From contig JAISTG010000018.1 in assembly GCA_031272705.1 (NCBI GenBank), positions 1-43,594 of the forward strand: a stretch of DNA of 43,594 nt, in the 5' to 3' direction. The notes beneath the pieces were generated by a model. It was not told where the DNA came from, made no database searches, and saw only the letters and a list, made by a program, of their open reading frames with translations. Positions 4,410-39,946 of this stretch are shown here, in pieces. The position numbers and the translations under genes are program-made. Within the stretch, counting starts at the first letter, position 1. Each line of letters opens with the position of its first letter. Source of the stretch: Bacteroidales bacterium. Lineage in GTDB: Bacteria; Bacteroidota; Bacteroidia; Bacteroidales; P3.

Positions 4410-4533
4410 CCTGAAATCAAATTCCGGCGCGCTAGAATTTGATTATAGAACGCTAGAATCAAATTACAGAATTCTATAATCAAATTCTAGCGTGCTGTAA
4501 TTTGATTCTAATTTTCCGTAATCAAATTTCAGG
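4410..4533. repeat. Phased 21-bp palindromic-word array (6 units)
   Basis: Six exact copies of AATCAAATT or its reverse complement AATTTGATT start at 4415, 4436, 4457, 4478, 4499 and 4520, in orientations F R F F R F. Every linker is exactly 12 nt: CCGGCGCGCTAG, ATAGAACGCTAG, ACAGAATTCTAT, CTAGCGTGCTGT, CTAATTTTCCGT. The array is bounded by CCTGA on the left and TCAGG on the right, which are inverted ends. It fills the divergent interval between lepA and the holin-like gene. It has no coding potential and no T-tract terminator form. Confidence 0.9.
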
Positions 4534-4599
4534 AAATTATAAGACAATTTGGGCATTATGTAAAAAAGTATTACTTTTGCAAACTCAAATTGTAAAAAA

Positions 4600-5079
4600 A
4601 TGAAAGAATACAAAATCAATTTCGGAGGAAATAACAACTCCCCAAAACAAAAAGGGTTTTGGACAAAAGTTATTGTTATGACGCTGGCTATTTGGATTAC
4701 CTGTCTGATATTTCCTTCCATAGTAACAGGAGATATATTGGGGGCGCTCCTTGCAGCAATCATTATCAGTTTATTAAATTCCTTCCTGCGTCCTTTGCTG
4801 ACTATGATTTTTATTCCGCTGATTGTGGTAACGTTTGGCTTTTTTTATGTAGTTATAAACGTAATAATAGTACTTTTAACGGCTGCTTTACTTCCCAATT
4901 TCAGCGTTAATGGATTCTGGGGTGCGGTAGGATTTATAATAATTGTAAGTGCTGTCAGTTGGTTGCTTGATATGCCTGCACGCTATAACCGTAAGAATGA
5001 ACCGAAACAGGAAAAAGAACCTGAATTTACTAATTATGAAGATGTCAGTAACGACAACGACAACGACAAAAAAGATTAA
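4600..5079 (+). CDS. Phage-holin-family 4-TM membrane protein (YvlD-like)
   Basis: The 159-aa protein resembles the PF04020 family ('Mycobacterial 4 TMS phage holin', YvlD in Bacillus). Four hydrophobic segments span roughly residues 22-45, 48-65, 68-95 and 100-125. A family-typical NSFLRPLL motif links segments 2 and 3. The C-terminal tail is hydrophilic and acidic, with Asn/Asp repeats. Despite the name these are host membrane proteins of unclear function. No prophage genes are nearby. panC starts 3 bp after the stop, so the two are probably co-transcribed. A TTTTGCAAACTC promoter-like element lies about 25 bp upstream of the ATG. Confidence 0.85.
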   Translation: MKEYKINFGGNNNSPKQKGFWTKVIVMTLAIWITCLIFPSIVTGDILGALLAAIIISLLNSFLRPLLTMIFIPLIVVTFGFFYVVINVIIVLLTAALLPNFSVNGFWGAVGFIIIVSAVSWLLDMPARYNRKNEPKQEKEPEFTNYEDVSNDNDNDKKD

Positions 5080-5082
5080 GCA

Positions 5083-5922
5083 ATGCTGGAAATAAAGACC
5101 ATCAATGAACTTATTGCATTTTGTGAAAACGTAAAAAAGGAAGGAAAAACCAAAGGCTTATTACCAACTATGGGAGCGTTGCATGAGGGACATTTGTCTT
5201 TGTTGCAGCGTGCCAAAACGGAAAATGATGTTGTTATTTGCAGCATTTTCGTTAATCCTGTTCAGTTTAACAACAGGGAAGATTTGGAAAAGTATCCGCG
5301 TGATTTGGAAAAGGATTTACACATCTTGGAAGAGAATGGCTGCGATGTTGCATTTACGCCTTCGGAAGAGGAAGTTTATGCGATAGAACCTGCTGAAAAA
5401 TATGATTTTGGCAAGTTGGAACAGGTTATGGAAGGCGTTGCACGTCCCGGACACTTCAATGGTGTGGCTACAATCGTAAAACGTCTTTTTGATTGGACAC
5501 AAGCCGACCGTGCTTACTTTGGAGAAAAAGATTATCAGCAGGTTATAATAATTAAAGACTTGGTTCGGCAGTTTGCAATCCCGACAAAAATAGTTGTCTG
5601 TCCAGTTTTCCGTGATGCGGATGGCTTGGCTACATCGTCAAGAAACCAAAGGCTGTCGGCAGAAAAGCGTTCCATTGCACCTAAAATCCATCAAATACTT
5701 CTCAAATCGGCATCCTTCACCGATACTCTTTCACTTTCGCAGATAAAAAACTTCGTTATAAATGAATTCAAAATGTATAAGGATTTTGAGTTAGAGTATT
5801 TTGAGATAGTAGATGACCAAAGCCTTCAACCCGTTTTGAACAAAGACAGCAATGGAATAGTAGGTTGCGTTGCCGTATGGCTTGATGGAGTGCGATTGAT
5901 TGATATTCAGCGTTATTATTAG
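5083..5922 (+). CDS. panC: Pantoate--beta-alanine ligase
   Basis: PanC condenses pantoate with beta-alanine using ATP, the last step of pantothenate synthesis, in the cytoplasm. The 279-aa protein shows the nucleotidyltransferase HxGH motif (PTMGALHEGHLSL, H34 and H37), FVNPVQF for pantoate binding, the GxxRPGHFNGVATIV stretch, and SSRNQRLS as the KMSKS-like loop. The usual partner panD is not adjacent. It lies 3 bp after the holin-like gene and 4 bp before a lipoprotein gene, an operon-like arrangement with no obvious metabolic logic. Confidence 0.97.
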   Translation: MLEIKTINELIAFCENVKKEGKTKGLLPTMGALHEGHLSLLQRAKTENDVVICSIFVNPVQFNNREDLEKYPRDLEKDLHILEENGCDVAFTPSEEEVYAIEPAEKYDFGKLEQVMEGVARPGHFNGVATIVKRLFDWTQADRAYFGEKDYQQVIIIKDLVRQFAIPTKIVVCPVFRDADGLATSSRNQRLSAEKRSIAPKIHQILLKSASFTDTLSLSQIKNFVINEFKMYKDFELEYFEIVDDQSLQPVLNKDSNGIVGCVAVWLDGVRLIDIQRYY

Positions 5923-5926
5923 TATC

Positions 5927-6580
5927 ATGTACAGATTTATTGTGGCGGTTTGCTTTATTTTGTTGCTTTTTGGCTGCAATGAAGAGGGCGTTTCAATTAA
6001 GGAAGGCGACCTTTTATTTCAGGCAAATGAACCTTCACAACTCACCAAAGCCATTGAAGGAGCGGGCGTTGGCTATAACGGACTTACCTTTTCTCATGTT
6101 GGGATTATATGTATTGACAATAGTGATACTAATGTGATAGAAGCCGTGCCTGAAAAGGGAGTTGTGATTACGCCTTTGCAGAAATATCTTTCGCAATCGG
6201 CAAAAAAACAGGACGGAACGCCATTTGTTTATGTTGCTCGCCTGTTACCTGAATACGAAAACCTTATTGACGATGCCATAACAAGGGCTAAATCGTTGGA
6301 AGGCAAGCCTTACGATAGTGTTTTCCTGCCTGATAATGATGCTTACTACTGTTCGGAATTGGTTTATAGCGTTTTCCTTGACCGAAACGGCAACCCGATT
6401 TTTGAATCTGCCCCTATGAGTTTCAAAAACAAGATTACCAATGAGTTTTATCCTGCATGGGTTGAGTTTTTTTCTCATTTGAATATGCCGATTCCCGAAG
6501 GTGTTATCGGCACAAATCCTAACGATATGTCAAGGTCAGGAATTATTGAGTTAAACCCTTTATTTACAGATACAAAATAA
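5927..6580 (+). CDS. YiiX/YebB-like permuted papain-fold lipoprotein
   Basis: The 217-aa product begins with a lipoprotein signal (lipobox LLFGC, C17). The mature part matches the permuted NlpC/P60-like YiiX family (PF05708): GDLLFQ, then SHVGI with the catalytic His (H57), then YYCSELVYSVF with the catalytic Cys (C142). Members are amidases or thioesterases, and the substrate is unknown. The ATG at 5927 is chosen because it gives the signal peptide directly; an in-frame ATG at 5900 lies inside panC and would spoil it. It follows panC by 4 bp. Confidence 0.82.
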   Translation: MYRFIVAVCFILLLFGCNEEGVSIKEGDLLFQANEPSQLTKAIEGAGVGYNGLTFSHVGIICIDNSDTNVIEAVPEKGVVITPLQKYLSQSAKKQDGTPFVYVARLLPEYENLIDDAITRAKSLEGKPYDSVFLPDNDAYYCSELVYSVFLDRNGNPIFESAPMSFKNKITNEFYPAWVEFFSHLNMPIPEGVIGTNPNDMSRSGIIELNPLFTDTK

Positions 6581-6618
6581 GGTTATCTGTTATGTTTTAC
6601 CTGTTTTGCGTTTCTAAA

Positions 6619-6757
6619 ATCAAAATTACAGCGTGCCGGAATCAAATTATAGAATTCTGTAATCAAATTACAGAACGCTAGAATTTGATTATAGAATTCT
6701 ATAATCAAATTCTAGTACGCTATAATTTGATTCTAATTTTCCGTAATCAAATTACAG
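6619..6757. repeat. Phased 21-bp palindromic-word array (7 units)
   Basis: Words start at 6619 (degenerate ATCAAAATT), 6640, 6661, 6682, 6703, 6724 and 6745, in exact 21-bp steps. The 12-nt linkers are ACAGCGTGCCGG, ATAGAATTCTGT, ACAGAACGCTAG, ATAGAATTCTAT, CTAGTACGCTAT and CTAATTTTCCGT. The last linker is identical to one in the 4.4-kb array, and ATAGAATTCTGT recurs in the 22-kb array. The array occupies the 342-bp gap before ccsA. The remainder of that gap (6760-6922) holds only a promoter-like TAATTTTGC around 6892-6900. Confidence 0.9.
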
Positions 6758-6922
6758 TTTCTTAAAGAACGATAAGCACTTTTTGTAAATGGAATAACCG
6801 TGAAATAAATTAGCGTTTAAACTATTCCTTGTCAAGAAATATAGTACAAAATCACTATTTTTGGGTATCTGATTGCTTTGATTAAAGCAATAATTTTGCA
6901 TTCTCAAATTTTGTTATAAGTG

Positions 6923-8404
6923 ATGAAGAAAATTATACGAAATACCTCCTTATTTATATTGATGTTTCTGTCCATTAATACTCTGGGACAGAAAACGGTA
7001 TCAAAGCAAACGGCTGATGCATTTAGCCGTTTGGCAGTTGAATATAACGGACGAATTTCTACAATCGGCACTCTGGCAAGAGATTTCACACAAAAAATAA
7101 CTGGAAAGACAGAATACAATAATTATAATGCCGTTCAGGTGTTTTGCGGGTGGCTTTTCTTCCCGCAGGACTGGGAAAATGAACCGATGATACACTTGAA
7201 AAACAAAGCGATACAAAAAAAACTCGGAGTAAAAAACCGTCTTGCTTTAACGGATTTCTTTTACCCTGAAGGGGCTTACCGATTGCCTTATTTGGGTTTG
7301 GAAATGACGGACAAGAGTGTTGTTGAGGCTGACGAAAAAGTAAATATAATCCTTGACGTTCAAAGAGGTAGGTGTCTTAAAATTTTCCCTTACAATAACA
7401 AATGGCTGTCGTTAGATGACAGATTAGAGGATGTGCAAAGCGAAGACACAATTTTCATAGCCAATATAATACCTCTGCTTGCCGAACAAATATATGAAGG
7501 AAATGAAATTGAGATTCAGCAAATTATAACAAAGATTGCAAAATTTCAAACTCAAAGAGTCAATAGCAAAATATCGGTTGCAAAAATCAAAATGGAGACT
7601 GCCTACAATAAATTAAACATAGTAGATATTATATTCAAAATCAACATTATTATTGCTTTAATTGCCTTCATTGATTTAATGTTTGCAAGGATAAAAAGCA
7701 GGAAACATAATCGCATAATAAAGTTTTTAGTAGCCTTAACCGTTATTGTATCATTTCTTTGGCTGACGGTAATGCTTGTATTTAGGGGTTGGATTTCCGG
7801 ACATTTGCCTATGAGTAATGGATATGAAACCATGATGTTTTCAAGTTGGATTATACTTCTTTTATCGTTGATTCTGCATAAACAGGAGGTTTTTTTTACC
7901 GGGGGGCTTTTTATTTCAGGGATTGCACTTTTAGTATGCTACCTGTCGGGATTAAATCCACAAATGACAAATCTCGTTCCCGTACTGCAATCTCCGTTAT
8001 TAAGTATTCACGTGAGCCTTATAATTATTTCCTACTCGCTTCTGGCTTTTTTAACTTTCAATTCCATTATTTCTCTTCTGCTGAAGGTTATCACAAAAGA
8101 ATATATCCACGATTTGAAATTAACAAAGACCATTTTGCTTATAGCCGTTCTTTTGCTTGGTTGCGGGATATTTGTCGGTGCAATTTGGGCTAATAATGCA
8201 TGGGGAAGGTATTGGGGCTGGGATCCAAAGGAAGTATGGGCGTTAATAACGTTCCTTGTCTATGGTATTGCGTTGTATGACAAGAGACTTCCCTTCTTTC
8301 GTGAGCCTTTCATATTTCATATTTATATGCTTTTAGCCTTCCTTACGGTATTGATGACCTATTTCGGCGTAAGCATATTCCTTGGCGGTATTCACAGTTA
8401 CTAA
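6923..8404 (+). CDS. ccsA: Cytochrome c assembly protein CcsA/ResC family
   Basis: This is the haem-handling protein of system II cytochrome c maturation. It presents haem at the outer face of the cytoplasmic membrane for attachment to CXXCH apocytochromes, together with a ResB/Ccs1 partner. The 493-aa protein has an N-terminal signal-like segment, a soluble stretch of about 200 residues (part of the ResB-like periplasmic region in Bacteroidota fusions), then about eight membrane segments. The WWD signature is WGRYWGWDPKEVWALI, around residues 425-440. The start is set at ATG 6923 rather than GTG 6920. A ResB-like gene lies four genes downstream, so the usual pair is separated. Confidence 0.9.
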   Translation: MKKIIRNTSLFILMFLSINTLGQKTVSKQTADAFSRLAVEYNGRISTIGTLARDFTQKITGKTEYNNYNAVQVFCGWLFFPQDWENEPMIHLKNKAIQKKLGVKNRLALTDFFYPEGAYRLPYLGLEMTDKSVVEADEKVNIILDVQRGRCLKIFPYNNKWLSLDDRLEDVQSEDTIFIANIIPLLAEQIYEGNEIEIQQIITKIAKFQTQRVNSKISVAKIKMETAYNKLNIVDIIFKINIIIALIAFIDLMFARIKSRKHNRIIKFLVALTVIVSFLWLTVMLVFRGWISGHLPMSNGYETMMFSSWIILLLSLILHKQEVFFTGGLFISGIALLVCYLSGLNPQMTNLVPVLQSPLLSIHVSLIIISYSLLAFLTFNSIISLLLKVITKEYIHDLKLTKTILLIAVLLLGCGIFVGAIWANNAWGRYWGWDPKEVWALITFLVYGIALYDKRLPFFREPFIFHIYMLLAFLTVLMTYFGVSIFLGGIHSY

Positions 8405-8419
8405 AAAATTATAAAAAAG

Positions 8420-9724
8420 ATGAAAAAGCAATTTCTTATTATTACAATTCTTTTGCTTGGCGTTTTGTCGGTATGCTCTCAAAACATAGTTCGGCAGGAC
8501 AGCACAGCAAACAAAGATAACAAAACCATCTTTTCGCGTCTGCAACTCGGCGGCTACGGAGAGGCTATTATGAGTCGTTTCTTTTACAGTGACAATTATA
8601 AACGTTACAGTAATGCCACATTGTATAAAGACGATAATGGCTACGGACAGGTTGATATTCCTCATGTTGTTTTCTATATTTCTTACGATTTCGGCAAAGG
8701 CTGGAAAATGTCTTCGGAAGTGGAATTTGAACACGGCGGAACAGAATCTGCGGTGGAGATAGAGATGGAAGAGACCGGCGAATACGAGAGCGAAATAGAA
8801 CGTGGCGGAGAAGTTGCTATTGAACAATTTTGGCTTGAGAAGTCATTTTCCAAAGCGGCTAATCTACGTATGGGACATATTATAGTTCCCGTTGGAATAA
8901 CCAATTCATACCATTTTCCTACGGAGTTCTTTACTACCTTTCGTCCTGAAAGCGAGAGTTCCATTTTGCCTTGCACTTGGCACGAAACAGGGATTAGTTT
9001 TTGGGGAAAGACAGATGGTTGGCATTACGAGGTACAATTTATCGCCGGTTTGGACGCCGACCGCTTTGGGAGTCAAAACTGGATAAAAGGAGGTGCCGGT
9101 TCGCCTTATGAATTCAAACTCGCAACAGCATACGCAGGTGCTTTTCGTATAGAAAACTATTCTCTTATAAAAGGTTTACGACTCGGCATCAGCGGTTATC
9201 TTGGCAATAGTGCCGCTAATAGCCTCAAAAAAACCAATTATGCAGATGTAAAAGGTACGGTGGCTATCGGGGATTTTGACTTTGAATACAAGAGCAGAAA
9301 TTTCATTGCTCGTGGGAATATTATTTACGGTCATTTAAGCGATTCCCAACGCATTACGGCAATCAATTTAGCTTCTCGCAATAGTTCGCCTTCGCCAAAA
9401 ACGCCTGTTGCTTCCGATGCGATGAGTATAGGAGTTGAATGGGGTTTTAACATATTCCGTTTATTGCCGTGTCTGCGTCATAGTGAGCATAAACTATTCT
9501 TTTTCAAACGTTATGAATACTATGATTCTATGTTCAAAGTTGCAAAGGGCGTTTTGGACAACGATTGTTGGGAGAGACAACAGATAACCATCGGGTTTAA
9601 CTACTTTCCAATCAAGGACATCGTTATAAAGGCTCAGTGGTCAAGCAGAATTTTCAACGATAAATACAATAACGAAAATACCATATCCGTAGGCATTGCG
9701 TACAGCGGTATGTTTATAAGATAA
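8420..9724 (+). CDS. Outer-membrane beta-barrel porin-like protein
   Basis: The 434-aa protein has a cleavable signal peptide (ends near VCSQ) and long amphipathic beta-strand patterns with aromatic ends. It contains LGGYGEAIMSRF near the N-terminus and an acidic loop (EIEMEETGEYESEIERGGE) around residue 115. It is a predicted outer-membrane channel of the phosphate-selective porin-like type. Its start is 15 bp after the ccsA stop. In similar Bacteroidota clusters such a porin accompanies imelysin and di-heme genes, which suggests uptake of iron or a related substrate. That role is inferred from context. Confidence 0.8.
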   Translation: MKKQFLIITILLLGVLSVCSQNIVRQDSTANKDNKTIFSRLQLGGYGEAIMSRFFYSDNYKRYSNATLYKDDNGYGQVDIPHVVFYISYDFGKGWKMSSEVEFEHGGTESAVEIEMEETGEYESEIERGGEVAIEQFWLEKSFSKAANLRMGHIIVPVGITNSYHFPTEFFTTFRPESESSILPCTWHETGISFWGKTDGWHYEVQFIAGLDADRFGSQNWIKGGAGSPYEFKLATAYAGAFRIENYSLIKGLRLGISGYLGNSAANSLKKTNYADVKGTVAIGDFDFEYKSRNFIARGNIIYGHLSDSQRITAINLASRNSSPSPKTPVASDAMSIGVEWGFNIFRLLPCLRHSEHKLFFFKRYEYYDSMFKVAKGVLDNDCWERQQITIGFNYFPIKDIVIKAQWSSRIFNDKYNNENTISVGIAYSGMFIR

Positions 9725-9757: not shown

Positions 9758-9865
9758 TTTGGTAAGGTCTCTCGGAGTTTTGCGGTCTTACCAAAATGAA
9801 ATTCTGTCCTACCGATTTGAAAAATTGTCCTACCGATTTGAAAAATTGTCCTACCCGAAAGTTTT
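9758..9865. repeat. 21-bp direct-repeat array plus inverted repeat
   Basis: GTCYTACC words start at 9785, 9806, 9827 and 9848, in exact 21-bp steps. The two middle units, GTCCTACCGATTTGAAAAAT plus T, are identical; the outer two are diverged. TTTGGTAAG (9758-9766) is the perfect inverse of CTTACCAAA (9787-9795). The sequence differs from the AATCAAATT family but the period is the same. The site separates the porin gene from the imelysin gene. Confidence 0.85.
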
Positions 9866-9919: not shown

Positions 9920-11095
9920 ATGAAAAAAATAAACACAAACGGAAAAAACACAGAATCCCCCGCGAAATCCGTATTGAAAAATATGGTACTCGCAATGACC
10001 GTCCTTATGCTTGCAGCCACAGCCTCAAGTTGTAATGACGACGAAGAAGACATTGCAGATGTATCCTCTTCGCAGTTAAAGGCAATCGTGAATCAGTATG
10101 TCAATAACACGGTTATTGCTACCTATCGCCTTCTTGCCGACAACGCAATGGATTTACAGCAAGCATGCAGCGAACTTTATCTAAATCCAACGCAAACCAA
10201 TGCGGATTATGCTTGCAGTAAATGGATAGCAGCCCGTAAATACTGGGAAGAAAGCGAAGCCTTCCTTTATGGACCGGCTTCAACCTATAGCATTGACCCG
10301 CATATTGATTCATGGCCACTTGACCAGCAGCAACTCAATAATCTGCTTGCTAACCAGTATGCAATGTCGCAAATGAGTGCCGATTATCTTGCAGCCAACT
10401 GCGGGTATGGGTTATTGGGATTTCACGCTTTGGAATATGTACTTTTCCGTGACGGACAGCCCCGCCCGATTTCACAAATTCCAACTACAGAACTTAATTA
10501 TGCAAAAGCAGTTGCCGAAGACCTCTGCCGCCAATGTATAAGGCTTGAAGCAAGTTGGGCAGGAATGAGCAAAATATCCGTCGAAAAACAGCAGATACTT
10601 GAAGATTGCGAACTTGAACCCGATATGAATTACGGCGAAATCCTTATCAATGCCGGACAATCGGGCTATACTCTCTTCAGAACCCTTAATGCTGCTATAA
10701 GTCAGATATTGATGGGTTGTAGCGATATAGCGGACGAGGTTGGAAATACAAAGATTGCCGACCCTGTCGCATCAGGTAATGTACTTGATGTTGAGAGTTG
10801 GTACAGTTGGAATTCCATAGCCGATTTTGCGGATAACATAAGGGGCATAAGTTATGTCTATAACGGCGGACGACCTGAAAACTCCAACTCTTATTCGGTA
10901 TCTTCTTACATTTCGTTTATAGATCCTTCTTTGGATGGAAAGATACGTCAGGCAATTACGGATGCAATTTATGAGATAGAAAATATGCCCGCACCATTTA
11001 GAAATCACCTTACGGAAACGGAAACTAATGCTGCAAAACAAGCATGCCAAAAATTGCAAGCCTTATTGGATGATGCGATGGATATTATTAACTAA
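9920..11095 (+). CDS. Imelysin-family lipoprotein (iron-regulated IrpA/ICMP type)
   Basis: The 391-aa protein belongs to the imelysin-like family (PF09375, old peptidase M75), periplasmic or surface proteins tied to iron uptake; EfeO is a relative. A lipobox (ATASSC, C38) follows a positively charged N-terminus, so it is a lipoprotein. The family GxHxxE motif is GFHALE (G167, H169, E172). The next gene, 15 bp on, encodes a di-heme protein, a well-known neighbour of imelysins. Protease activity is not supported by the sequence; a metal- or haem-binding role is more likely. Confidence 0.9.
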   Translation: MKKINTNGKNTESPAKSVLKNMVLAMTVLMLAATASSCNDDEEDIADVSSSQLKAIVNQYVNNTVIATYRLLADNAMDLQQACSELYLNPTQTNADYACSKWIAARKYWEESEAFLYGPASTYSIDPHIDSWPLDQQQLNNLLANQYAMSQMSADYLAANCGYGLLGFHALEYVLFRDGQPRPISQIPTTELNYAKAVAEDLCRQCIRLEASWAGMSKISVEKQQILEDCELEPDMNYGEILINAGQSGYTLFRTLNAAISQILMGCSDIADEVGNTKIADPVASGNVLDVESWYSWNSIADFADNIRGISYVYNGGRPENSNSYSVSSYISFIDPSLDGKIRQAITDAIYEIENMPAPFRNHLTETETNAAKQACQKLQALLDDAMDIIN

Positions 11096-13437: not shown

Positions 13438-13499
13438 CCATATTTTTTTATACTTTTGCACCCTTGTATAATTTAATTGTTTAATTTTAATTCAAAGAT

Positions 13500-14603
13500 A
13501 TGTCGTTGAAATGTGGCATTGTGGGACTGCCGAACGTAGGAAAATCCACTTTATTTAACAGTTTGTCAAACGCAAAGGCGCAAGCCGCCAATTTTCCTTT
13601 TTGCACCATTGAGCCGAATCTTGGTGTCATAAGCGTACCTGACGAAAGACTTAACGTATTGGCTCGTTTGGTGAATCCGCAAAGAATAGTGCCGACCACC
13701 GTAGAAATAGTTGATATTGCCGGATTGGTCAAAGGTGCGAGCAAAGGCGAAGGACTGGGGAACAAATTCCTCGCTAACATCCGCGAATGCGATGCTTTGC
13801 TGCACGTTTTGAGGTGTTTTGATGACGAAAACGTAGTTCATGTTGATGGAAATGTCAATCCGCTGCGAGATAAGGAGATTATAGATACCGAATTGCAACT
13901 TAAAGACTTGGAAACCATAGAGACACGTTACGCAAAGGCTGAAAAGTCGGCGAAAGTTGGAGGTAATAATGAAGCGAAAGTGCAGTTTGAAGTTTTGAAA
14001 TGCTATAAACAGGTCTTGGAACAGGGACGCAACGCAAGGGAAATAACCTTTGAGAAGCCGGAAGAACAAAAGGCTGCACGGGAATTATGTTTGCTGACGG
14101 CGAAACCTGTTTTATATGTGTGCAATGTTGATGAGGCTTCGGCAAAGTCGGGGAATGCGTATGTTGAAACGATACGTTGGCAGGCGGAAAAGGAGGATGC
14201 GGAAATTCTTATCGTGGCTGCGAAAATTGAAGCGGACATTGCGGAACTGGAAACTTACGAAGAAAAGACTATGTTTTTGGAAGAGTTGGGGCTAACGGAG
14301 AGTGGCGTTGTGCGATTGATAAAAGCGGCTTACAAATTGTTGAATCTGGAAACTTTTTTGACCGCCGGACCTTCCGAAGTGAGGGCATGGACATTTATAA
14401 AGGGCAGTAAAGCACCGGTTTGTGCGGGAGTAATTCACTCCGACTTTGAAAAGGGATTCATACGTGCCGAAGTAATAAAGTATAACGATTATGTGCGACT
14501 TGGAAGTGAGCAGGCGTGTAAGGAAAACGGCAAAATGTCGGTTGAAGGAAAGGATTACGTTGTTCGGGACGGAGATATAATGCACTTCCGCTTTAATGTG
14601 TAA
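13500..14603 (+). CDS. ychF: YchF/OLA1-family ATPase
   Basis: YchF is a cytoplasmic, ribosome-associated P-loop ATPase of the Obg family with a C-terminal TGS domain. It is conserved in nearly all bacteria and linked to stress responses. The 367-aa length is normal. Motifs are GLPNVGKST (residues 9-17), the DIAGLVKGASKGEGLG switch II region, and CNVDE in place of NKxD, the change that gives YchF its ATP preference. The C-terminus ends with GDIMHFRFNV. The last 57 bp at the gene end recur at 16125-16181 beyond the downstream islet. Confidence 0.97.
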   Translation: MSLKCGIVGLPNVGKSTLFNSLSNAKAQAANFPFCTIEPNLGVISVPDERLNVLARLVNPQRIVPTTVEIVDIAGLVKGASKGEGLGNKFLANIRECDALLHVLRCFDDENVVHVDGNVNPLRDKEIIDTELQLKDLETIETRYAKAEKSAKVGGNNEAKVQFEVLKCYKQVLEQGRNAREITFEKPEEQKAARELCLLTAKPVLYVCNVDEASAKSGNAYVETIRWQAEKEDAEILIVAAKIEADIAELETYEEKTMFLEELGLTESGVVRLIKAAYKLLNLETFLTAGPSEVRAWTFIKGSKAPVCAGVIHSDFEKGFIRAEVIKYNDYVRLGSEQACKENGKMSVEGKDYVVRDGDIMHFRFNV

Positions 14604-16322: not shown

Positions 16323-16399
16323 GGCTCCATAGCTCAACTGAATAGAGTACCTGACTACGGATCAGGCGGTTGCAGGTTTGAATCCTGCTGGAGTCACCA
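16323..16399 (+). tRNA. tRNA-Arg (anticodon ACG)
   Basis: A 77-nt cloverleaf with encoded CCA. The acceptor GGCTCCA pairs with TGGAGTC (one G-U). The D arm contains AGCTCAACTGAATAGAGT. The anticodon stem CCTGA/TCAGG encloses CTACGGA with anticodon ACG, which would be read as ICG after deamination. The T arm is GCAGG TTTGAAT CCTGC. The discriminator is A, followed by CCA. It stands alone, 142 bp beyond the islet boundary. Confidence 0.97.
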
Positions 16400-20113: not shown

Positions 20114-20887
20114 TTAATTGAAAATGATGTGAGGTTTAAGGGATTCGTCGGTTATGATTTGTGCATCCACGCCAAAGAAACGCCTGATATTCAACGGAGA
20201 AAGTATGTTTTTGGTGTCGCCCTTTGCCACAAGAGAGCCGCCGTTCAGCACAAACAGATGTTGAGTATGTGCCAATGCGAGGTTGAGGTCGTGGAGAATG
20301 ACAACGATAGTTCTGTGTTCCAATCGGTTAATTTGGGTTAAAAGGTTCATTATTTCCTGCTGATGTTTGATGTCCAAAGAGGAAATCGGCTCGTCCAAAA
20401 GAATAAACGGCGTGTCCTGAACCAATGCTCTGGCAATGATAATTCGTTGTAACTCACCGCCGGACAGCACTTTCACAGACGTGTTTCGCAGATCCCACGT
20501 TCCTGTTTGCCTCATTGCCCTTTCCACTTTTGCTAAATCCTCCTCAGAATCCGCCATAAGCCATCGCTTCTGAGAGGCAAACCGACCCATCATTACGATT
20601 TGATGCGCCGAGAAATCAAAGAGAATGTCGGTATGTTGCGGCACAACAGCAATTTGTTTGGCTAATTGGCGTGCGGAGTATGAGGCAATATCCTTTCCGT
20701 TTATGGTTATTGAGCCGTCGGATTTTGTGTTAAGAGTGCCTGACATACAGCGTAAAAGGGTTGTTTTTCCGCTGCCATTGTTACCTATTATGCCGTAAAA
20801 TCCGCCGTCTTCAAGGCAAAGACTCACGTCATTTAACAGAATCTTGTGTCTGTTTGCTTTGTATGTGAGGTGTTTTACTTCAATCAT
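20114..20887 (-). CDS. ABC importer ATPase (BtuD/FecE type)
   Basis: The 257-aa cytoplasmic ATPase has Walker A GNNGSGKTT (residues 35-43), a Q-loop in VVPQHTD, signature LSGGELQR, Walker B FILLDEP and switch His in VILHDLN. It belongs to the FecCD-associated group that energises cobalamin or iron-chelate import. The spacing to the permease upstream and the binding protein downstream is 3 bp each, so the three are translated from one transcript. Confidence 0.95.
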   Translation of the reverse strand: MIEVKHLTYKANRHKILLNDVSLCLEDGGFYGIIGNNGSGKTTLLRCMSGTLNTKSDGSITINGKDIASYSARQLAKQIAVVPQHTDILFDFSAHQIVMMGRFASQKRWLMADSEEDLAKVERAMRQTGTWDLRNTSVKVLSGGELQRIIIARALVQDTPFILLDEPISSLDIKHQQEIMNLLTQINRLEHRTIVVILHDLNLALAHTQHLFVLNGGSLVAKGDTKNILSPLNIRRFFGVDAQIITDESLKPHIIFN

Positions 20888-20890
20888 CGT

Positions 20891-21994: not shown

Positions 21995-22108
21995 AATTTG
22001 ATTACGGAAAATTATAATCAAATTCTAGCGTTCTGGAATCAAATTATAGAACGCCGGAATTTGATTATAGAATTCTGTAATTTGATTCTAGCGTGCCGGA
22101 ATTTGATT
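21995..22108. repeat. Phased 21-bp palindromic-word array (6 units)
   Basis: Exact words start at 21995, 22016, 22037, 22058, 22079 and 22100, in orientations R F F R R R. The linkers, all 12 nt, are ACGGAAAATTAT, CTAGCGTTCTGG, ATAGAACGCCGG, ATAGAATTCTGT and CTAGCGTGCCGG. The right end runs into TGGCTACG, shared with 1856-1872. The array lies between the divergent starts of the ABC importer and the deiminase gene. Confidence 0.9.
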
Positions 22109-22156
22109 TGGCTACGCCGAGATAAAGTTTCTGATATACTCTTATGAACTTTTGGT

Positions 22157-22187: not shown

Positions 22188-22211
22188 CAAAAATTTTAAT
22201 ACACAAAACGA

Positions 22212-24284
22212 ATGAAAAAAACATTTATATTCCTGCTTGCAGCCCTTGTTATTTCGGTTGCAGCAACAGGACAGACAAATAAGGCATTGTTAGACCGGAA
22301 ACGTGCCGATGCTTTGCAAAAAGCAGAAAGTTTAAGTGAAACACAAATCATTGAAAACTTTAAGAAATATCATCAAAGAAAGCCCGTACAGCATGATTTG
22401 AGCAAAATCAAAATACAAAAGGCTGAAACAAGTACAGCCGAGTCAAAAGCCGAACTTGCGGTGCCTGATAATATGATTTTCCCTAATGAGGCTGACGAGG
22501 TACAGGCTATTCTTATGACTTGGTTATACGATTCTTACACGGTGAATGGTGATAATTATGCCGAGCCAATGTTCGAAGGATTGGGCTTTGATTACTATGA
22601 CGCAACTTATACGCTGGTTGATATTTACAGTGTGCCTGATGTGGCTTCCAACAGCCCTTATGCCAAACTTTTTGCTTCACTTGCAAACGGTATTCAGCAA
22701 TATACACAGGTGTGGATTAACATTTGGGACGGTGCGGACTCAACTTTGATAAAAGATTATATGACTTCACGCGGTACTCCTTTGACAAACTATCGGTTCT
22801 TTATTTCTCCCGGCAACTCCTTTTGGTATCGTGATTGCGGACCTGTTGCTTTCTATTACGGCGAAGAAGACAGTATTGCCTTTATGGACTTTGAATACTA
22901 CGGCGGAAGACCAATGGACGATAAACTTCCTGTGTTTATAGGTCAGCAGGCAGGCTTCCCTGTTTATACCAATACGATTGAGTATGAGGGAGGTAACATT
23001 CTGCTTGACGGAGCAGGCTCTTTATTCACTTCTTCTGCGGTTTATGACTTGAACCAGGACAATTACGGTTTATACGTTCAAGACCCGAATAATCCTTATA
23101 ACTATTCCTTGCAATACAAACCTGCTCTGAGCAAAGCAAATGTTAATGATAGTCTTACACATTTGCTAAATCTCTCACGTTGTGTTGTTTTACCTGCTCT
23201 GAATTATGATGGCGGAACAGGACATGTTGATTTGTACATGGATATGTGGGATGAGAATACGTTCGTATCAACAAAGCATCCCGATGTAATGGCTAATCTG
23301 TCCGACCCTAAAAGAGTTGAAAGTAATATGGACAGCATTACGAAACTTACTTCAATGCACGGAGTCAATTATCACAACACCCGTATCCCTCTTCCTACAA
23401 AAGACGATGGTACATGGTACTCTTCGCAAACTCAATACAACAACTCTTACACCCGTTCTTACTCAAACCATACCTTTGTTAATAAAGGTATAATGCAACC
23501 CGTATTTCATACCGGAACAAGCGGATATGAGCAGGGTGATTCCGCAGCAATAGAGATTATGAAAGTTTGTTATCCGGGTTATGAATTTACGGAAATTGAC
23601 GTTAGAACTTTTGATGGTTATGGTGGAGCAATACATTGTATCACTAAACAGATACCTGCGGAAAATCCTGTAAGAATTTATCATGACCCTGTACGTACAT
23701 GGAATACGGCATCAGGCAATCCCGCTGTTGTAAGAGCTATCTGTCAAAACAAAAGTGGAATAGAATCTGTTACTCTTTACTATCGCAAGAAGGGAGAACA
23801 GACATGGAACAGCCAAAATATGTGGTATGATTCTTATAGTATGTGGTACGGCGCTCTTCCTTTGGAACAAAATACTGCTCAAACGATAGACACTATGGAA
23901 TACTATCTTTCAGCAACTTCAAACAACGGAAAAACAATAACAAAGCCCATAACAGCATCACAAGGATTTTATTCTACGGCTTATGCTTATAATGTAGATG
24001 GCGTAGGTTTGCAATCTGCTGCTTCGATTACCGATATGCACATCGGAGAGTTTTCTCCAAATCCGTCAAACGGCAAAACAGAATTACGAATTGAAGGAGG
24101 CTTGAAATCAGACCTCGCTGTAAGAATAGTAAGTGTTAAAGGACAGGTGCTTTATTCTGATGTACTGAAACAGGGAACTGATTCGTTTGAATTAAATACG
24201 GAAAACTTCCGTTCAGGTGTTTATTGGGCTATCTTCGGACAAAATGGAAATACAACGGCTCGCAAATTAGTTGTTGTAAAGTAA
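22212..24284 (+). CDS. Secreted peptidylarginine/agmatine deiminase-like protein with T9SS C-terminal domain
   Basis: The 690-aa protein has a signal peptide (ends near ATGQ), a pro-segment, then a guanidine-deiminase domain (PF04371, PAD_porph type) from about residue 80 to 500. Candidate catalytic residues follow the family order: D208 (WYRDCGP), H338 and D340 (GTGHVDLYMDM), and nucleophile C476 (GGAIHCITKQ). An Ig-like stretch (about 505-600) and a type A T9SS sorting domain (about 615-690, with PNPSNGKTEL, SGVYWAIF and KLVVVK) follow. The nearest named relative is the Porphyromonas enzyme PPAD, which citrullinates proteins, but domain spacing here is longer. Peptidyl versus free-amine specificity cannot be told. 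It probably acts outside the cell or on its surface. Confidence 0.88.
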   Translation: MKKTFIFLLAALVISVAATGQTNKALLDRKRADALQKAESLSETQIIENFKKYHQRKPVQHDLSKIKIQKAETSTAESKAELAVPDNMIFPNEADEVQAILMTWLYDSYTVNGDNYAEPMFEGLGFDYYDATYTLVDIYSVPDVASNSPYAKLFASLANGIQQYTQVWINIWDGADSTLIKDYMTSRGTPLTNYRFFISPGNSFWYRDCGPVAFYYGEEDSIAFMDFEYYGGRPMDDKLPVFIGQQAGFPVYTNTIEYEGGNILLDGAGSLFTSSAVYDLNQDNYGLYVQDPNNPYNYSLQYKPALSKANVNDSLTHLLNLSRCVVLPALNYDGGTGHVDLYMDMWDENTFVSTKHPDVMANLSDPKRVESNMDSITKLTSMHGVNYHNTRIPLPTKDDGTWYSSQTQYNNSYTRSYSNHTFVNKGIMQPVFHTGTSGYEQGDSAAIEIMKVCYPGYEFTEIDVRTFDGYGGAIHCITKQIPAENPVRIYHDPVRTWNTASGNPAVVRAICQNKSGIESVTLYYRKKGEQTWNSQNMWYDSYSMWYGALPLEQNTAQTIDTMEYYLSATSNNGKTITKPITASQGFYSTAYAYNVDGVGLQSAASITDMHIGEFSPNPSNGKTELRIEGGLKSDLAVRIVSVKGQVLYSDVLKQGTDSFELNTENFRSGVYWAIFGQNGNTTARKLVVVK

Positions 24285-27573: not shown

Positions 27574-27653
27574 CCTGAAATCAAATTACAGAAAATTAGA
27601 ATCAAATTCTAAAATGCTGTAATTTGATTCTAATTTTTTATAATTTGATTTCA
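27574..27653. repeat. Phased 21-bp palindromic-word array (4 units)
   Basis: Exact words start at 27579, 27600, 27621 and 27642 in orientations F F R R. The linkers are ACAGAAAATTAG, CTAAAATGCTGT and CTAATTTTTTAT. CCTGA (27574-27578) and TCA (27651-27653) bound it, as in the 4.4-kb array. It lies in the divergent gap between the sigma factor gene and the ncRNA. Confidence 0.88.
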
Positions 27654-34776: not shown

Positions 34777-34817
34777 TAAAAATTACAATTCCGTCATTTC
34801 CGTACCACAAATGCCTG

Positions 34818-37126: not shown

Positions 37127-37215
37127 CCAGAAGACACTTCCTGTTCAAGAGCATTTCTTTTTAGGATAGCAGGAGAACAAACCAATAAGAAAAAAACATT
37201 TTTTTTAATTTTTGG

Positions 37216-37245
37216 TTGCTCATTGATAAAAAAAGTATAATTTTG
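37216..37245 (+). promoter_or_regulatory. Promoter of the MFS transporter gene
   Basis: TTG (37216-37218), exactly 19 nt, then TAATTTTG (37238-37245) and CAGCC. The ATG at 37288 is 42 bp downstream. Its presence argues against simple rnfD read-through. Confidence 0.75.
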
Positions 37246-37287
37246 CAGCCTTTAATTAACGTATTTTTTAATTTAATTTTTATCAAA

Positions 37288-38910
37288 ATGAATACAACAA
37301 CAAAGTTAATGAGAGATGTTCCCGCCATACGCTGGACGGCTCTTGTATTATTGGCATTTGCCATGTTCTGTTCGTATATCTTTATGGATATACTGTCTCC
37401 TATTAAAGACCTTATGCAATCCACACGAGGCTGGGATTCAACTGCATTTGGTACTATGCAGGGGTCGGAAACGTTCTTGAACGTCTTTATTTTCTTCCTC
37501 ATTTTTGCAGGTATCATCTTGGACAAAATGGGAGTTCGTTTTACTGCTATTCTATCGGGTACGGTGATGTTGATTGGTGCTGCAATCAAATGGTATTCCG
37601 TAAGTGAAACATTTAAGGGAACAGGTTTGGAAACTTGGTTTAACAACAACTTAAACTATATTCCGGGATTTCAAGAATTAGGTATTGCTCCATTTTACAA
37701 AGGAATGCCTGCCTCTGCAAAACTTGCATCCTGCGGTTTTATGATATTTGGCTGCGGTGTAGAAATGGCAGGAATAACGGTTTCAAGAGGTATTGTTAAA
37801 TGGTTTAAAGGAAGAGAAATGGCTTTGGCTATGGGTTCGGAGATGGCTCTTGCTCGTTTGGGCGTTGCTACCTGTATGATTTTCTCTCCAATGTTTGCAA
37901 AGGCAAATATCTTTGGAGGACCACATGTTTCCCATTCTGTTGCCTTTGGAGTTATTCTGTTGATGATTGCATTGATAATGTTCATTGTTTATTTCTTTAT
38001 GGACAAAAAACTTGACGCTCAAACAAGCGAAGCAGAAGAAAAAGATGAGCCATTCCGTCTAAAAGATTTGGGAGGCATTCTTTCCAGTTGGGGCTTCTGG
38101 CTTGTGGCGTTGTTATGCGTTCTTTACTATTCGGCAATTTTCCCTTTTCAAAAATATGCGGTTAATATGTTGCAGTGCAATCTTACCTTTACAGCACCGG
38201 AAGAAGGTTCGTTCTGGGCTGGTAACAGTGTAACAATCATTCAGTATGTAATAATGCTGGTCGTTGCTGCCGCTGCGTTTATTTCTAACTTTTCAAAAGG
38301 AGCAATGAAAACTATTTATTTGGTAATTTCTGTTACATTCTTAATAATCTTTTGCTACATGGGCTATATGCGTCAATCGGCTGAAACAATTTTTGCAGTG
38401 TTCCCATTATTAGCAGTTGGAATTACGCCAATACTTGGAAAATATGTAGATAATAAGGGAAAAGCAGCGTCAATGCTAATGATAGGTTCTTTGTTGTTAA
38501 TTGCCTGCCATTTGACCTTTGCATTCATCTTGCCAATGGCAAAAGGAAGTGAAATAGGTGGAGTTATGATTGCGTACATTACTATTTTAGTTTTGGGAGC
38601 ATCTTTTTCACTTGTTCCTGCTTCGCTTTGGCCTTCCGTTCCTAAGCTTGTGGATAGCAAAGTTATTGGTTCGGCTTATGCACTTATCTTTTGGATACAA
38701 AATATCGGCTTATGGTTGTTCCCATTGTTAATTGGAAAGATATTAGACAAAACAAATGTTGGAGTAACCGACCCTACAAAGTTAGATTATACTATTCCGT
38801 TATTGATGTTAGCATTACTTGGAGTTGCGGCATTGATACTTGGATTTGTGCTTAAAGCATGGGACAAGAAGAAAGGGCTTGGCTTAGAATTGCCAAACAT
38901 TCAAAAATAA
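37288..38910 (+). CDS. MFS transporter, substrate unknown
   Basis: The 540-aa inner-membrane protein has about twelve helices and an MFS-type signature after helix 2 (FAGIILDKMGVRF). A loop of about 60 residues follows that region (SVSETFKGTGLETWF...), and a charged central loop (MDKKLDAQTSEAEEKDEPF) separates the halves. It resembles Bacteroidales nitrate/oxalate-like MFS proteins only in overall layout. ATG 37288 is chosen because the promoter at 37216-37245 overlaps an upstream in-frame ATG. A terminator follows 20 bp after the stop. Confidence 0.87.
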   Translation: MNTTTKLMRDVPAIRWTALVLLAFAMFCSYIFMDILSPIKDLMQSTRGWDSTAFGTMQGSETFLNVFIFFLIFAGIILDKMGVRFTAILSGTVMLIGAAIKWYSVSETFKGTGLETWFNNNLNYIPGFQELGIAPFYKGMPASAKLASCGFMIFGCGVEMAGITVSRGIVKWFKGREMALAMGSEMALARLGVATCMIFSPMFAKANIFGGPHVSHSVAFGVILLMIALIMFIVYFFMDKKLDAQTSEAEEKDEPFRLKDLGGILSSWGFWLVALLCVLYYSAIFPFQKYAVNMLQCNLTFTAPEEGSFWAGNSVTIIQYVIMLVVAAAAFISNFSKGAMKTIYLVISVTFLIIFCYMGYMRQSAETIFAVFPLLAVGITPILGKYVDNKGKAASMLMIGSLLLIACHLTFAFILPMAKGSEIGGVMIAYITILVLGASFSLVPASLWPSVPKLVDSKVIGSAYALIFWIQNIGLWLFPLLIGKILDKTNVGVTDPTKLDYTIPLLMLALLGVAALILGFVLKAWDKKKGLGLELPNIQK

Positions 38911-38930
38911 TAATATCTCATTATAAAACA

Positions 38931-38966
38931 AAAGGCTTTGGATATTTTGTCCAAAGCCTTTTTGTT
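38931..38966. terminator. Bidirectional terminator between MFS and XRE genes
   Basis: AAAGGCTTTGG (38931-38941) and CCAAAGCCTTT (38951-38961) form a perfect 11-bp stem with a 9-nt loop, with A- and T-rich sides. The two genes converge on it. Confidence 0.92.
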
Positions 38967-38968
38967 AG

Positions 38969-39175
38969 TTATTTCCAGTCTTTGTCTTCAAGTTCAAAAA
39001 CTTCATTAACCGATTTGCCGAAGATGTGAGCAATCTTCATCACCACCAAAGCAGAGGGAACATATTTTTCTAACTCAATGGCGTTGATTGTCTGCCGACT
39101 TACTCCCACTTTTTCAGCAAGTTCCTGTTGCGAAATGTTTAATACAGCCCGCTCTATTCTTATTCTGTTTTTCAT
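38969..39175 (-). CDS. Small XRE-family transcriptional regulator
   Basis: The 68-aa protein is a single helix-turn-helix of the Cro/C1 type (LNISQQELAEKVGVSRQTIN, then SALVVMKIAHIFGKSVNEVF), like YozG-family regulators. It has no ligand domain. It starts 21 bp after the stop of a membrane protein gene, a common pairing in which the regulator controls its partner operon. Confidence 0.92.
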   Translation of the reverse strand: MKNRIRIERAVLNISQQELAEKVGVSRQTINAIELEKYVPSALVVMKIAHIFGKSVNEVFELEDKDWK

Positions 39176-39196
39176 TTTTCAAAATAGATTAAGCCG

Positions 39197-39736
39197 TTAA
39201 ACACAATGACAATCATCACACTGACACTTCGTTTCCTCGTCTTTGCATTTGCACACCTGACGTTTAAGTCTCCACAACTCATAATTAAACTTGCAGAGGA
39301 AGAGAAGCAGAAACATATCTATGTCATAAAGAATAACATAGATGTAAGGCAAACCATAGATAAACAAAGTGAGCAGAATGAAAATTGAATAGCCCACAAG
39401 CATTGACCAAACCAACGACTGCTCTCGGATTTTACCGATGTATTCGTCCTCATCTTTCCTTCGTGCAAAGGAAATGAAGCAAACGCCAACTATTAACAAC
39501 ACTTGAAAAAGCGTTGCATTGAAAGTGGTTTTTGCCATAGTGAAAAGGAATGTTCCGTCTTCATTTTCACTGCCCAAACCCAGCACTCCATTATCGGAAA
39601 TAAAGGCAGGCATCTTCAAATCAAAGTCCCAATCCACTCCAAAGATAATTTGGATTAACATCCACGCCAAAACAGGCAACGTAATTATCCAACCGATTTT
39701 CTGAAAATAAGTTGGAAACAAATAAGATCTTTTCAT
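39197..39736 (-). CDS. Four-TM membrane protein with Cys-rich tail
   Basis: The 179-aa protein has hydrophobic segments at about residues 14-32, 65-85, 105-125 and 127-145. The C-terminus is strikingly Cys-rich (CKCKDEETKCQCDDCHCV; seven Cys in the last 18 residues), suggesting metal or redox binding on the cytoplasmic side. ATG 39736 is preferred over an upstream one because TTG-N20-TACTTTTGCAGCC (minus strand, about 39768-39798) sits just ahead. It is followed by the XRE regulator. Function unknown. Confidence 0.8.
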   Translation of the reverse strand: MKRSYLFPTYFQKIGWIITLPVLAWMLIQIIFGVDWDFDLKMPAFISDNGVLGLGSENEDGTFLFTMAKTTFNATLFQVLLIVGVCFISFARRKDEDEYIGKIREQSLVWSMLVGYSIFILLTLFIYGLPYIYVILYDIDMFLLLFLCKFNYELWRLKRQVCKCKDEETKCQCDDCHCV

Positions 39737-39895
39737 ACGAATTAAAAAATTAAATATTAACGGCTGCAAAAGTACAATTATTTTTCCAAATAGACAAATA
39801 AATTTTACATTATGACAAAACAATTTTTCATAATGTCGTTTTTACTTACTGAAACAAAGGAATATAAAGCATTAAATTTTATTTCAATTTTCTGA

Positions 39896-39946
39896 AACTT
39901 GATTACGGAAAATTAGAATCAAATTATAGAATGCCGGAATTTGATT
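39896..39946. repeat. Phased 21-bp palindromic-word array (3 units)
   Basis: AACTTGATT (39896), AATCAAATT (39917) and AATTTGATT (39938) are in exact 21-bp steps with linkers ACGGAAAATTAG and ATAGAATGCCGG. The array lies between the promoter of the membrane protein gene and the terminator of the OmpA-family gene, in a 304-bp gap that otherwise shows no gene. Confidence 0.85.

What the first reader, a model, noticed from the sequence alone, without database searches (positions are those of the whole stretch)
4410..39946. A family of intergenic arrays with an exact 21-bp grammar and a combinatorial linker vocabulary
Five arrays (4410-4533, 6619-6757, 21995-22108, 27574-27653, 39896-39946) contain 26 words of AATCAAATT or its reverse complement, 24 of them exact. 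All 21 linkers are exactly 12 nt. Linkers divide into 4+4+4: the outer blocks come from a small set (ATAG, ACAG, CTAG, CTAA, ACGG, CCGG and reverse complements) and the middle from AATT, AACG, CGTT, CGTG, CGCG, TACG, AATG, AAAA or TTTT. Two whole linkers recur between loci (CTAATTTTCCGT, ATAGAATTCTGT). Constant length with shuffled content means the spacing is under constraint. Twenty-one bp is two helical turns, so all words face the same side of the DNA. I know of no described element with this design. A nucleoid or regulatory protein binding cooperatively, or a slippage/recombination-driven repeat, would fit.
Basis: partly seen in the sequence, partly recalled or inferred. Interest (0 to 1): 0.93.

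Follow-up and report, generated by a model that had tools for sequence, protein, structure and literature searches.

The report
Genome-wide 21-base-pair DNA lattice
In this uncultured Bacteroidales bacterium the DNA carries a pattern repeated exactly every 21 base pairs (two turns of the helix), not only in the intergenic arrays first noticed but also in the silent third codon positions of most genes tested, and it is likely the imprint of a protein that coats the chromosome, which would be a new form of DNA packaging code.

Summary
In detail: 24 exact words in five arrays, neighbours 21 bp apart. It is the tip of something larger. The genome has 332 direct word pairs at this pitch, and 49 clusters in 409 kb sampled. 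Congeners nearly lack such pairs but keep the 21-bp pitch in intergenic DNA with other words. The pitch is also written into genes, mostly at third codon positions: 63% of 231 genes exceed a synonymous-codon shuffle by z>2, 83% of 230 in congener G001, against 6% of 186 in other families and 1 of 33 in E. coli. Register set by an array persists about 380 bp outward, into genes. A codon-corrected model prefers 21 among periods 18-24, and in G001 genes it learns a profile matching that genome's intergenic word. Indels of exactly 7 codons and 21-bp tandem repeats are over-represented. Best reading: a sequence-specific structural code, probably imposed by a chromosome-coating protein, one dimer per two helical turns, with arrays lengthened by slippage. 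The protein is inferred, not found. Closest known kind: the ~11-bp structural code of cyanobacteria.

The parts
4415..4528 (.). Array 1: 6 exact words at 21-bp pitch, divergent intergenic region (lepA on -, next gene on +); ends TTTCCTGA...TCAGGAAA
6619..6753 (.). Array 2: 6 exact words (6640-6753) plus an in-register inexact word at 6619, between two + genes
21995..22108 (.). Array 3: 6 exact words, divergent intergenic region; right edge TGGCTACGCCGA, whose TACGCCGA recurs at 5 array edges
27579..27650 (.). Array 4: 4 exact words, divergent intergenic region
39896..39946 (.). Array 5: 2 exact words plus variant AACTTGATT at 39896, between two - reading frames
9805..9855 (.). Exact 21-bp tandem duplication (2.4 copies, 100%) of an unrelated unit, between reading frames 8420-9724 and 9920-11095
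2506..4305 (-). lepA reading frame (stop to stop) carrying the 21/42-bp signal at synonymous third positions, z 4.0
6920..8401 (+). CcsB-like cytochrome c biogenesis gene (below NCBIfam cut-off) with strong synonymous 21-bp signal, z 7.0 (7.9)
5900..6577 (+). Reading frame with synonymous 21-bp signal, z 6.3
20117..20890 (-). Reading frame with synonymous 21-bp signal, z 4.5
22200..24281 (+). T9SS-tail gene with weak agmatine-deiminase match, synonymous 21-bp signal z 4.3
13491..14600 (+). Reading frame with synonymous 21-bp signal, z 4.3

Best explanation
The five arrays are the codon-free outcrops of a 21-bp-pitch sequence pattern that also runs through the genes and other intergenic DNA of the sampled genome, and it is likely imposed by an abundant DNA-coating (nucleoid) protein predicted to contact DNA once per two helical turns. 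Shown: pitch 21, dyad-symmetric unit (AT-rich arms around a short core, random core orientation), presence at synonymous sites, register continuing from arrays into genes, word turnover between species at fixed pitch. Inferred: a homodimer or filament reads the arms; neighbouring dimers sit on one face of the helix; weak selection (or a mutation pattern phased by the coat) draws silent sites and intergenic bases toward the word; where no codons interfere the lattice becomes nearly perfect, and slippage between in-register words adds or removes whole 21-bp units.
For: Arrays at exact pitch. Intergenic autocorrelation z at lag 21/42: G001 33.2/29.0, G000 with arrays masked 20.9/11.8, G002 15.7/11.4, G003 12.2/7.7, against 1.2/0.6 in 21 kb pooled from other families (20 loci fetched, 18 with usable intergenic DNA). 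Lag-21 excess by codon position G001 .0152/.0125/.0638, G000 .0195/.0169/.0485; synonymous shuffle cuts position 3 to .0026/.0033; other families .0045/.0069/.0036. Genes with z>2: 63% of 231 (G000), 83% of 230 (G001), 57% of 44 (G003); control lags 2% in each. Phase coherence above all control lags to about 300 bp in G001 and 210 bp in G000. Array register z 51.7, 20.5, 12.5, 8.2, 6.2, 4.0, 0.1, 2.7, 3.1, 0.4 in successive 63-bp bins. Codon-corrected model gain at period 21: 1.98 against .21-.37 at 18-24 (G001), 1.42 against .30-.44 (G000).55 against .24-.56 (other families); profile A W A C n n S n T W T learned from G001 genes matches that genome's intergenic AAACAGCCTTT. Needle-sharp third-position peak at 7 codons in G001 (.3258; neighbours .2605/.2616) argues for base recognition. 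Seven-codon indels 32, six-codon 17, eight-codon 7, summed over three overlapping comparisons; control 4, 5, 3. Proteins that read 21-bp repeats are known in principle: AraC-family rhamnose regulators, Bacteroides included, have predicted direct-repeat sites with 21-bp periodicity (PMC3870299, passage).
Against: No protein has been identified: no archaeal/eukaryal-type histone family in 12 genomes, and HU-family counts do not follow signal strength (G001 5, G000 11, G002 4, G023 14). Coding signal is weak in G002 (15% of 350 genes) and near background in G023 (11% of 92; means .82 and .28) although both have intergenic 21-bp signal. The profile learned from G000 genes (A W T C n n S n T W T) resembles the G001 one and only its first half spells that genome's own array word. 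Whether orthologous genes keep the same phase was inconclusive: most of the cross-species excess is what shared bases alone would give. 21-bp duplications of unrelated units would also arise from a purely mutational process. Selection was not separated from mutation.
Confidence: 0.55

Rival explanations
1. Pure structural code: the pattern only makes DNA curved or flexible with the helical repeat (phased AT-rich segments), with no sequence-specific protein.
For: AT/GC content at third positions has a strong 10.5-bp component (power 2.82, median 0.92 in G001), and intergenic spectra show 10.5, 7 and 5.25 bp peaks, in G000 above the 21-bp one. Genome-wide ~11-bp structural codes at third codon positions are known in cyanobacteria (passages of PMC4132750).
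Against: The strongest base-identity lag is 21, not 10.5, and the third-position peak is a single needle rather than a sinusoid. G/C-preferring core positions, a conserved 3-base core in either orientation and word turnover between congeners are not needed for curvature.
Confidence: 0.17
2. Mutational minisatellite process: replication slippage or duplication with a 21-bp quantum makes quasi-repeats everywhere; no function.
For: Period 21 is the commonest TRF period (12 or more) in G000-G003 and G023, lattice arrays included, and not among the ten commonest in other families; several near-perfect ones have unrelated units. Among copies at least 90% alike, period 21 is 14 of 45 (G000), 12 of 38 (G001), 8 of 59 (G002, where 12 bp leads), 3 of 7 (G003). 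Some arrays repeat a 42-bp pair almost perfectly (L017:17883-18059). Seven-codon indels are enriched.
Against: Duplication copies whole codons, yet in G001 amino-acid identity at lag 7 is only .0703 against about .062, while third-position identity is up by .064 and synonymous shuffling removes that. lepA, at full length in all four congeners, carries the signal in G000 (z 4.0). Random core orientation is not made by head-to-tail slippage.
Confidence: 0.15
3. Molecular drive: the word is an uptake or recombination signal that spreads by biased DNA transfer, and the receptor prefers sites spaced by two helical turns.
For: Word is orientation-independent, enriched genome-wide, differs between related species, as is recalled for uptake sequences of Neisseria and Pasteurellaceae.
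Against: A continuous register over hundreds of bp inside genes is not expected of discrete uptake sites. Competence genes were not examined.
Confidence: 0.06
4. Selfish interspersed element (REP/MITE-like arrays) that amplified in this species.
For: Few exact word pairs in congeners G001-G003; two near-identical arrays with shared flanks in G023 (L057 11481 and L058 6423); recurrent array edges.
Against: No REP-associated transposase family PF01797 in G000-G003; array edges grade into weaker in-register units rather than ending sharply; the same pitch lies in genes.
Confidence: 0.05

Closest known systems
~11-bp 'structural code' of cyanobacterial and other bacterial genomes (AT2/A-tract periodicity; PMC4132750, PMC7537859, PMC3431218: passages seen)
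   Same: Genome-wide, in genes and between them, mainly at synonymous third positions, strength varies between related species, tied by authors to DNA packaging or an unknown selected role.
   Different: Here the repeat is exactly 21 bp with a dyad-symmetric, base-specific word; coherence about 200-300 bp; it crystallises into near-perfect intergenic arrays; the word changes between congeners while the pitch stays; 50 kb of E. coli shows no third-position peak at 21.
Nucleosome-positioning periodicity (archaeal/eukaryal, 10-10.5 bp)
   Same: 10.5-bp AT/GC component; likely imprint of a DNA-wrapping protein.
   Different: No histone family PF00808 detected in 12 genomes; 21-bp base identity dominates; specific words.
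AraC-family rhamnose regulator sites with 21-bp direct-repeat periodicity (PMC3870299, passage seen)
   Same: A protein is predicted to read DNA as repeats 21 bp apart, in Bacteroides among others.
   Different: A single pair of repeats at pathway promoters; here arrays of up to 11 exact words, unit orientation random, no promoter preference, and the pitch continues through genes.
BrickBuilt MITE/minisatellite of Porphyromonas gingivalis (PMC4596501; abstract and passages seen)
   Same: Intergenic tandem repeats in a Bacteroidales genome.
   Different: BrickBuilt is a discrete element with terminal inverted repeats (19 elements in the passage seen); here arrays grade into a genome-wide pattern that enters genes.
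REP/BIME elements with RAYT transposase (recalled)
   Same: Short intergenic palindromic units, many copies.
   Different: No RAYT family member in G000-G003; fixed 21-bp pitch; presence in genes.

Membership tests
Bacterial ~11-bp structural code | Periodic signal in both coding and intergenic DNA | tested here: met
Bacterial ~11-bp structural code | Signal mainly at synonymous third codon position, lost on synonymous permutation | tested here: met
   definition from passages of PMC4132750
Bacterial ~11-bp structural code | Dominant period about 11 bp in A/T dinucleotides | tested here: not met
   Strongest base-identity lag is 21; an AT/GC component at 10.5 is present. Dinucleotides as such were not tested.
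Nucleosome-type positioning code | Histone-fold protein encoded | tested here: not met
   PF00808: 0 of 12 genomes, control rang in 3 archaea; other histone models not searched
REP/BIME | RAYT (Y1 transposase) in genome | tested here: not met
   PF01797 absent in G000-G003; present in 2 of 9 genomes (G032, G209)
MITE such as BrickBuilt | Discrete ends with terminal inverted repeats and target duplication | tested here: inconclusive
   8 of 98 array flanks begin TCAGGAAA and some arrays have it at both edges, but flanks grade into weaker units; no empty site found, 0 of 4 testable array junctions syntenic
Minisatellite (slippage) | Head-to-tail near-identical copies | tested here: inconclusive
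   True for some; orientation random and 90 distinct linkers among 162
Known RNA family | Match to an Rfam model | tested here: not met
   Only a tRNA at 16323-16396 at gathering scores
DNA uptake sequence | Biased uptake of word-bearing DNA | not testable with these tools
   needs transformation assay

The most novel reading that the evidence does not exclude
A bacterial chromosome written for sequence-addressed chromatin: a protein dimer every exactly 21 bp reads a species-specific dyad word along much of the chromosome, silent codon positions are used as its binding surface, insertions are kept in 7-codon quanta, and protein specificity and thousands of sites change together between sister species.
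Probability: 0.4. Interest if true: 0.96.

Novelty: new variant of a known kind. Interest (0 to 1): 0.9.

Why it matters
The cause and use of helical periodicity in bacterial genomes is an old open question because the signals are weak and sinusoidal. Here the period is exact, the word is explicit and differs between sister species, and the intergenic arrays are ready-made probes: a pull-down with array DNA against the same words at another pitch should name the protein. It would also show a DNA-level constraint strong enough to steer silent codon choice and indel length across most of a genome, which matters for codon-usage, selection and gene-calling methods.

Tried and rejected
Promoter/terminator role: of 43 arrays with three or more exact words and a reading frame on both sides, 23 are co-directional, 11 divergent, 9 convergent; all intergenic gaps of 150 bp or more: 69, 29, 20 (array gaps included), so no clear preference. 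Coding 7-residue repeats: excluded for the bulk by codon-position and synonymous-shuffle tests, though a few reading frames in G000 and G002 look like true 21-bp repeats. REP/RAYT, histone, HU expansion: no support. Empty-site analysis failed for lack of synteny; one search printed nothing, and the flanking genes mostly matched different stretches. The EM without codon correction was dominated by the codon period and is not used. Cross-species phase test inconclusive. Exact 6-mer recurrence at lags 21/42 in genes: 2011 against 905 in G001, spread over many words; in G000 and G002 a few tandem repeats dominate the list. Strength against codon-usage deviation: weak (rho -0.13, p .058 in G001; -0.19, p .008 in G000); against GC3 strong (rho .48 and .49). 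Of the 8 lowest-signal long genes listed for each of G000 and G001 I scanned 6 each: one phage-capsid match below cut-off next to a Clp-protease-like gene, a pyruvate:ferredoxin oxidoreductase subunit (POR_N plus PFOR_II) in each genome, an LRR protein, an S1-domain protein, RecA, a sub-cut-off radical-SAM match, and four (two in each genome) without family. Of the 6 highest listed for each I scanned 4 (G001) and 3 (G000): three tRNA synthetases, MutL, SufB, a patatin and a YfhO match. Too few for statistics.

Paper searches for prior reports: 'AATCAAATT' anywhere (191 papers, 20 listed), BrickBuilt, sequence periodicity with nucleoid and A-tract (20 of 24 listed), '21 bp' with periodicity, intergenic and Bacteroid (15 of 18), '21-bp periodicity' (one paper, on AraC-family sites), termite/Bacteroidales tandem repeats (10 of 11), synonymous periodicity with nucleoid proteins (5). 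In the listings and passages seen none describes a 21-bp genome-wide code; the library lacks most subscription journals.


Full report
WHAT IS IN THE WINDOW. The five arrays are real and the pitch is exact: 28 exact words in the window, 24 in arrays, 19 neighbour pairs at 21 bp; Markov sequences of the same dinucleotide make-up give 3.24 words on average and no 21-bp pair in 100 trials. NCBIfam places the organism among T9SS-bearing Bacteroidota (PorX, with LepA, PanC and others). The nearest named genomes are Bacteroidales MAGs: Md513_bin63, Hs463_bin99 and Hm464_bin103 have contigs of the same length as G002 C19, G003 C48 and G001 C1 (8,078, 47,080 and 432,554 bases). That these prefixes mean termite hosts is my recollection, not a call.

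GENOME-WIDE ARRAYS. The genome has 332 direct pairs (control 0) and 159 convergent pairs, and 247 overlapping matches of four AATNNNATT units at pitch 21 (reversed-pattern control 12). In 409 kb sampled there are 49 clusters, of up to 11 exact words; 481 of 489 word spacings within 130 bp are multiples of 21 and neighbour orientation is random. The sample came from contigs known to carry hits, so the density is not a fair estimate for the whole genome. The unit is dyad-symmetric: AAT-core-ATT with outward flanks mostly of the form N-Y-R-G/A on both sides, so pseudo-dyads fall every 10.5 bp, at word centres and linker centres. Arrays lie in every kind of intergenic gap. Their flanks are not random: position-specific preferences recur at +9, +30, +51 and +12, +33, +54.

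THE PATTERN IS OLDER THAN THE WORD. Congeners almost lack exact word pairs (direct: G001 1, G002 2, G003 0; convergent: 1, 1, 0), yet their intergenic DNA has strong autocorrelation at 21, 42, 63 and 84 (G001 z 33.2, 29.0, 22.3, 17.0; G002 15.7, 11.4, 7.5, 5.2; G003 12.2, 7.7, 5.1, 3.3 on 7.6 kb). G001 arrays read AAACAGCCTTT, AAACGCTGTTT and reverse complements; G003 AAACGCCGTTT, AAACGCCACTTT; other genera AAACGAAGTTTTA, AAACTTGATTTC. G002 also holds near-perfect 21-bp tandem repeats of unrelated text. Of 80 named loci, 79 were long enough for a third-position test: z at lag 21 was 11.3 in L157, 10.0 in L145 (G001), 6.6 L152, 5.1 L154, 4.9 L160, 4.5 L158, 4.2 L221, 3.7 L159, 3.1 L164, 2.9 L143 (G002), 2.7 L144 (G003), 2.6 L153, and 2.5 or less in the other 67; none of the 18 other-family loci long enough to test exceeded 2.5. 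Intergenic DNA pooled from 23 low-GC loci of that search: z 16.1 at 21; from the higher-GC ones 4.5, where 21 is not the top lag; from other families 1.2.

IT IS WRITTEN INTO GENES. Lag-21 identity in coding DNA is .3066 (G000) and .3015 (G001) against about .277 and .270 at neighbouring codon lags; G023 .2996 against .299 and other families .2849 against .281. The median reading frame carries it in G000 and G001. By codon position the excess is largest at position 3 and vanishes there on synonymous shuffling, while positions 1 and 2 keep a smaller excess through the amino acids (lag-7 residue identity .0753 and .0703 against about .063 and .062). By gene: mean z 2.78 and 63% above 2 in G000 (231 genes), 3.95 and 83% in G001 (230), 2.47 and 57% in G003 (44).82 and 15% in G002 (350).28 and 11% in G023 (92).21 and 6% in other families (186); control lags 1-4%. 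E. coli K-12, 33 genes: mean .11, one above 2. A periodic model with codon-position backgrounds, tried at periods 18-24, prefers 21 sharply in G001 and G000 and not in other families; the profile learned from G001 genes, A W A C n n S n T W T, matches that genome's intergenic word, whereas the G000 gene profile, A W T C n n S n T W T, is close to G001's and spells its own array word only in the first half. Register fixed by an array is detectable for about 380 bp outside it (z 51.7 falling to 4.0 over six 63-bp bins, then 0.1, 2.7, 3.1, 0.4); in 73 of the 86 flanks the next reading frame lies within 189 bp, so the outer bins are mostly genes.

INDELS COME IN THE SAME QUANTUM. Period 21 is the commonest TRF period of 12 or more in G000-G003 (98 of 216, 105 of 194, 84 of 274, 15 of 29 arrays, lattice arrays included) and G023 (27 of 65), and is not among the ten commonest in other families. 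Alignment gaps of 7 residues between orthologues are 6, 12 and 14 in three pairings, against 4, 7, 6 for six residues and 3, 1, 3 for eight; a control from loci without the signal gave 5, 4, 3 for six, seven, eight. The pairings share genomes, so events may be counted twice.

MECHANISM. Shown by calls: exact pitch, dyad unit, synonymous-site imprint, continuing register, word turnover, 21-bp indel quantum. Inferred: a protein. A base-specific but symmetric word whose core may point either way is what a homodimer reads; two helical turns puts neighbours on one face; a needle-like rather than sinusoidal lag profile speaks for base contacts and not curvature alone. That proteins can read 21-bp repeats has a precedent in predicted AraC-family sites (PMC3870299, passage). 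Signal missing from a probable prophage patch and from genes such as POR and S1 (few genes) fits either slow acquisition with competing codon selection, or exclusion of the coat from highly transcribed DNA. Signal rises with GC3 (rho .48.49), which may only mean that AT-saturated genes cannot show G/C positions. Selection versus coat-phased mutation is not resolved.

AGAINST THE READING. No protein was found; histone and HU searches do not explain it. G002 has arrays and intergenic signal but a weak coding signal, and G023 hardly any, so coding imprint is not universal among carriers. Orthologue phase conservation was inconclusive. Autocorrelation z values assume independent sites and are inflated by tandem duplicates; control lags wander by up to .010, so I claim coherence only to about 300 bp (G001) and 210 bp (G000). 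The per-gene shuffle tests are the safer figures. Reading frames were stop-to-stop heuristics, not curated gene calls.

COMPARISON. Genome-wide periodic 'structural codes' at third codon positions exist: cyanobacteria at about 11 bp (PMC4132750, passages) and a broader 10-11 bp set argued to be under selection (PMC7537859, passages); strongly periodic chromosomes were linked to nucleoid structure and fewer prophages (PMC3431218, passages). The present case shares the kind and differs in exact period, symmetry, base specificity, arrays and word turnover; hence 'new variant of a known kind', with a categorically new chromatin system as the bold reading.

On re-reading the calls I corrected: coherence length (about 300, not 400 bp), the later bins, the loci above 2.5, the meaning's count, the G002 figures, the G000 gene profile, and the paper, which I had called unrelated and then looked up.

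Noticed in passing
G000 intergenic DNA, arrays masked: A secondary autocorrelation at 22, 44, 66 and 88 bp (z 12.3, 8.1, 3.7, 3.9) and 15 TRF arrays of period 22: a 22-bp sister lattice or units with one inserted base.
   Followed up: no
window 22109-22120; L020 4892 left edge; L025 4006 left edge; L033 8115 left flank: Several arrays end in CGGCGTAGCCA, itself a GGC-core-GCC dyad placed where a linker would be.
   Followed up: no
L053, L079, L083, L049, L091 (G001): G001 arrays often border a unit like AATGTCAGTGCGACACGCAC, perhaps a terminal unit of the lattice.
   Followed up: no
L057 about 11481 and L058 about 6423 (G023): Two arrays 15 kb apart are nearly identical including 30-bp flanks; two more (L059 15376, L061) share one end. 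Dispersal or gene conversion of arrays.
   Followed up: no
L031 5105-9400 (G000 C20): Probable prophage patch: phage-capsid match below cut-off and a Clp-protease-like gene, with no 21-bp signal.
   Followed up: partly
G023 C1:102822, G209 C25:214759: Arrays of the same architecture with core GCC/GGC instead of CAA/TTG; core uniform within an array but flipping.
   Followed up: partly
G004: 25 HU-family (PF00216) matches at E <= 0.001, at least twice those of every other genome tested except G023 (14) and G003 (13).
   Followed up: no
array junctions in sampled G000: None of 4 testable gene pairs flanking arrays is adjacent in the fetched parts of G001 or G002; too few to say whether arrays mark rearrangement points.
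   Followed up: partly
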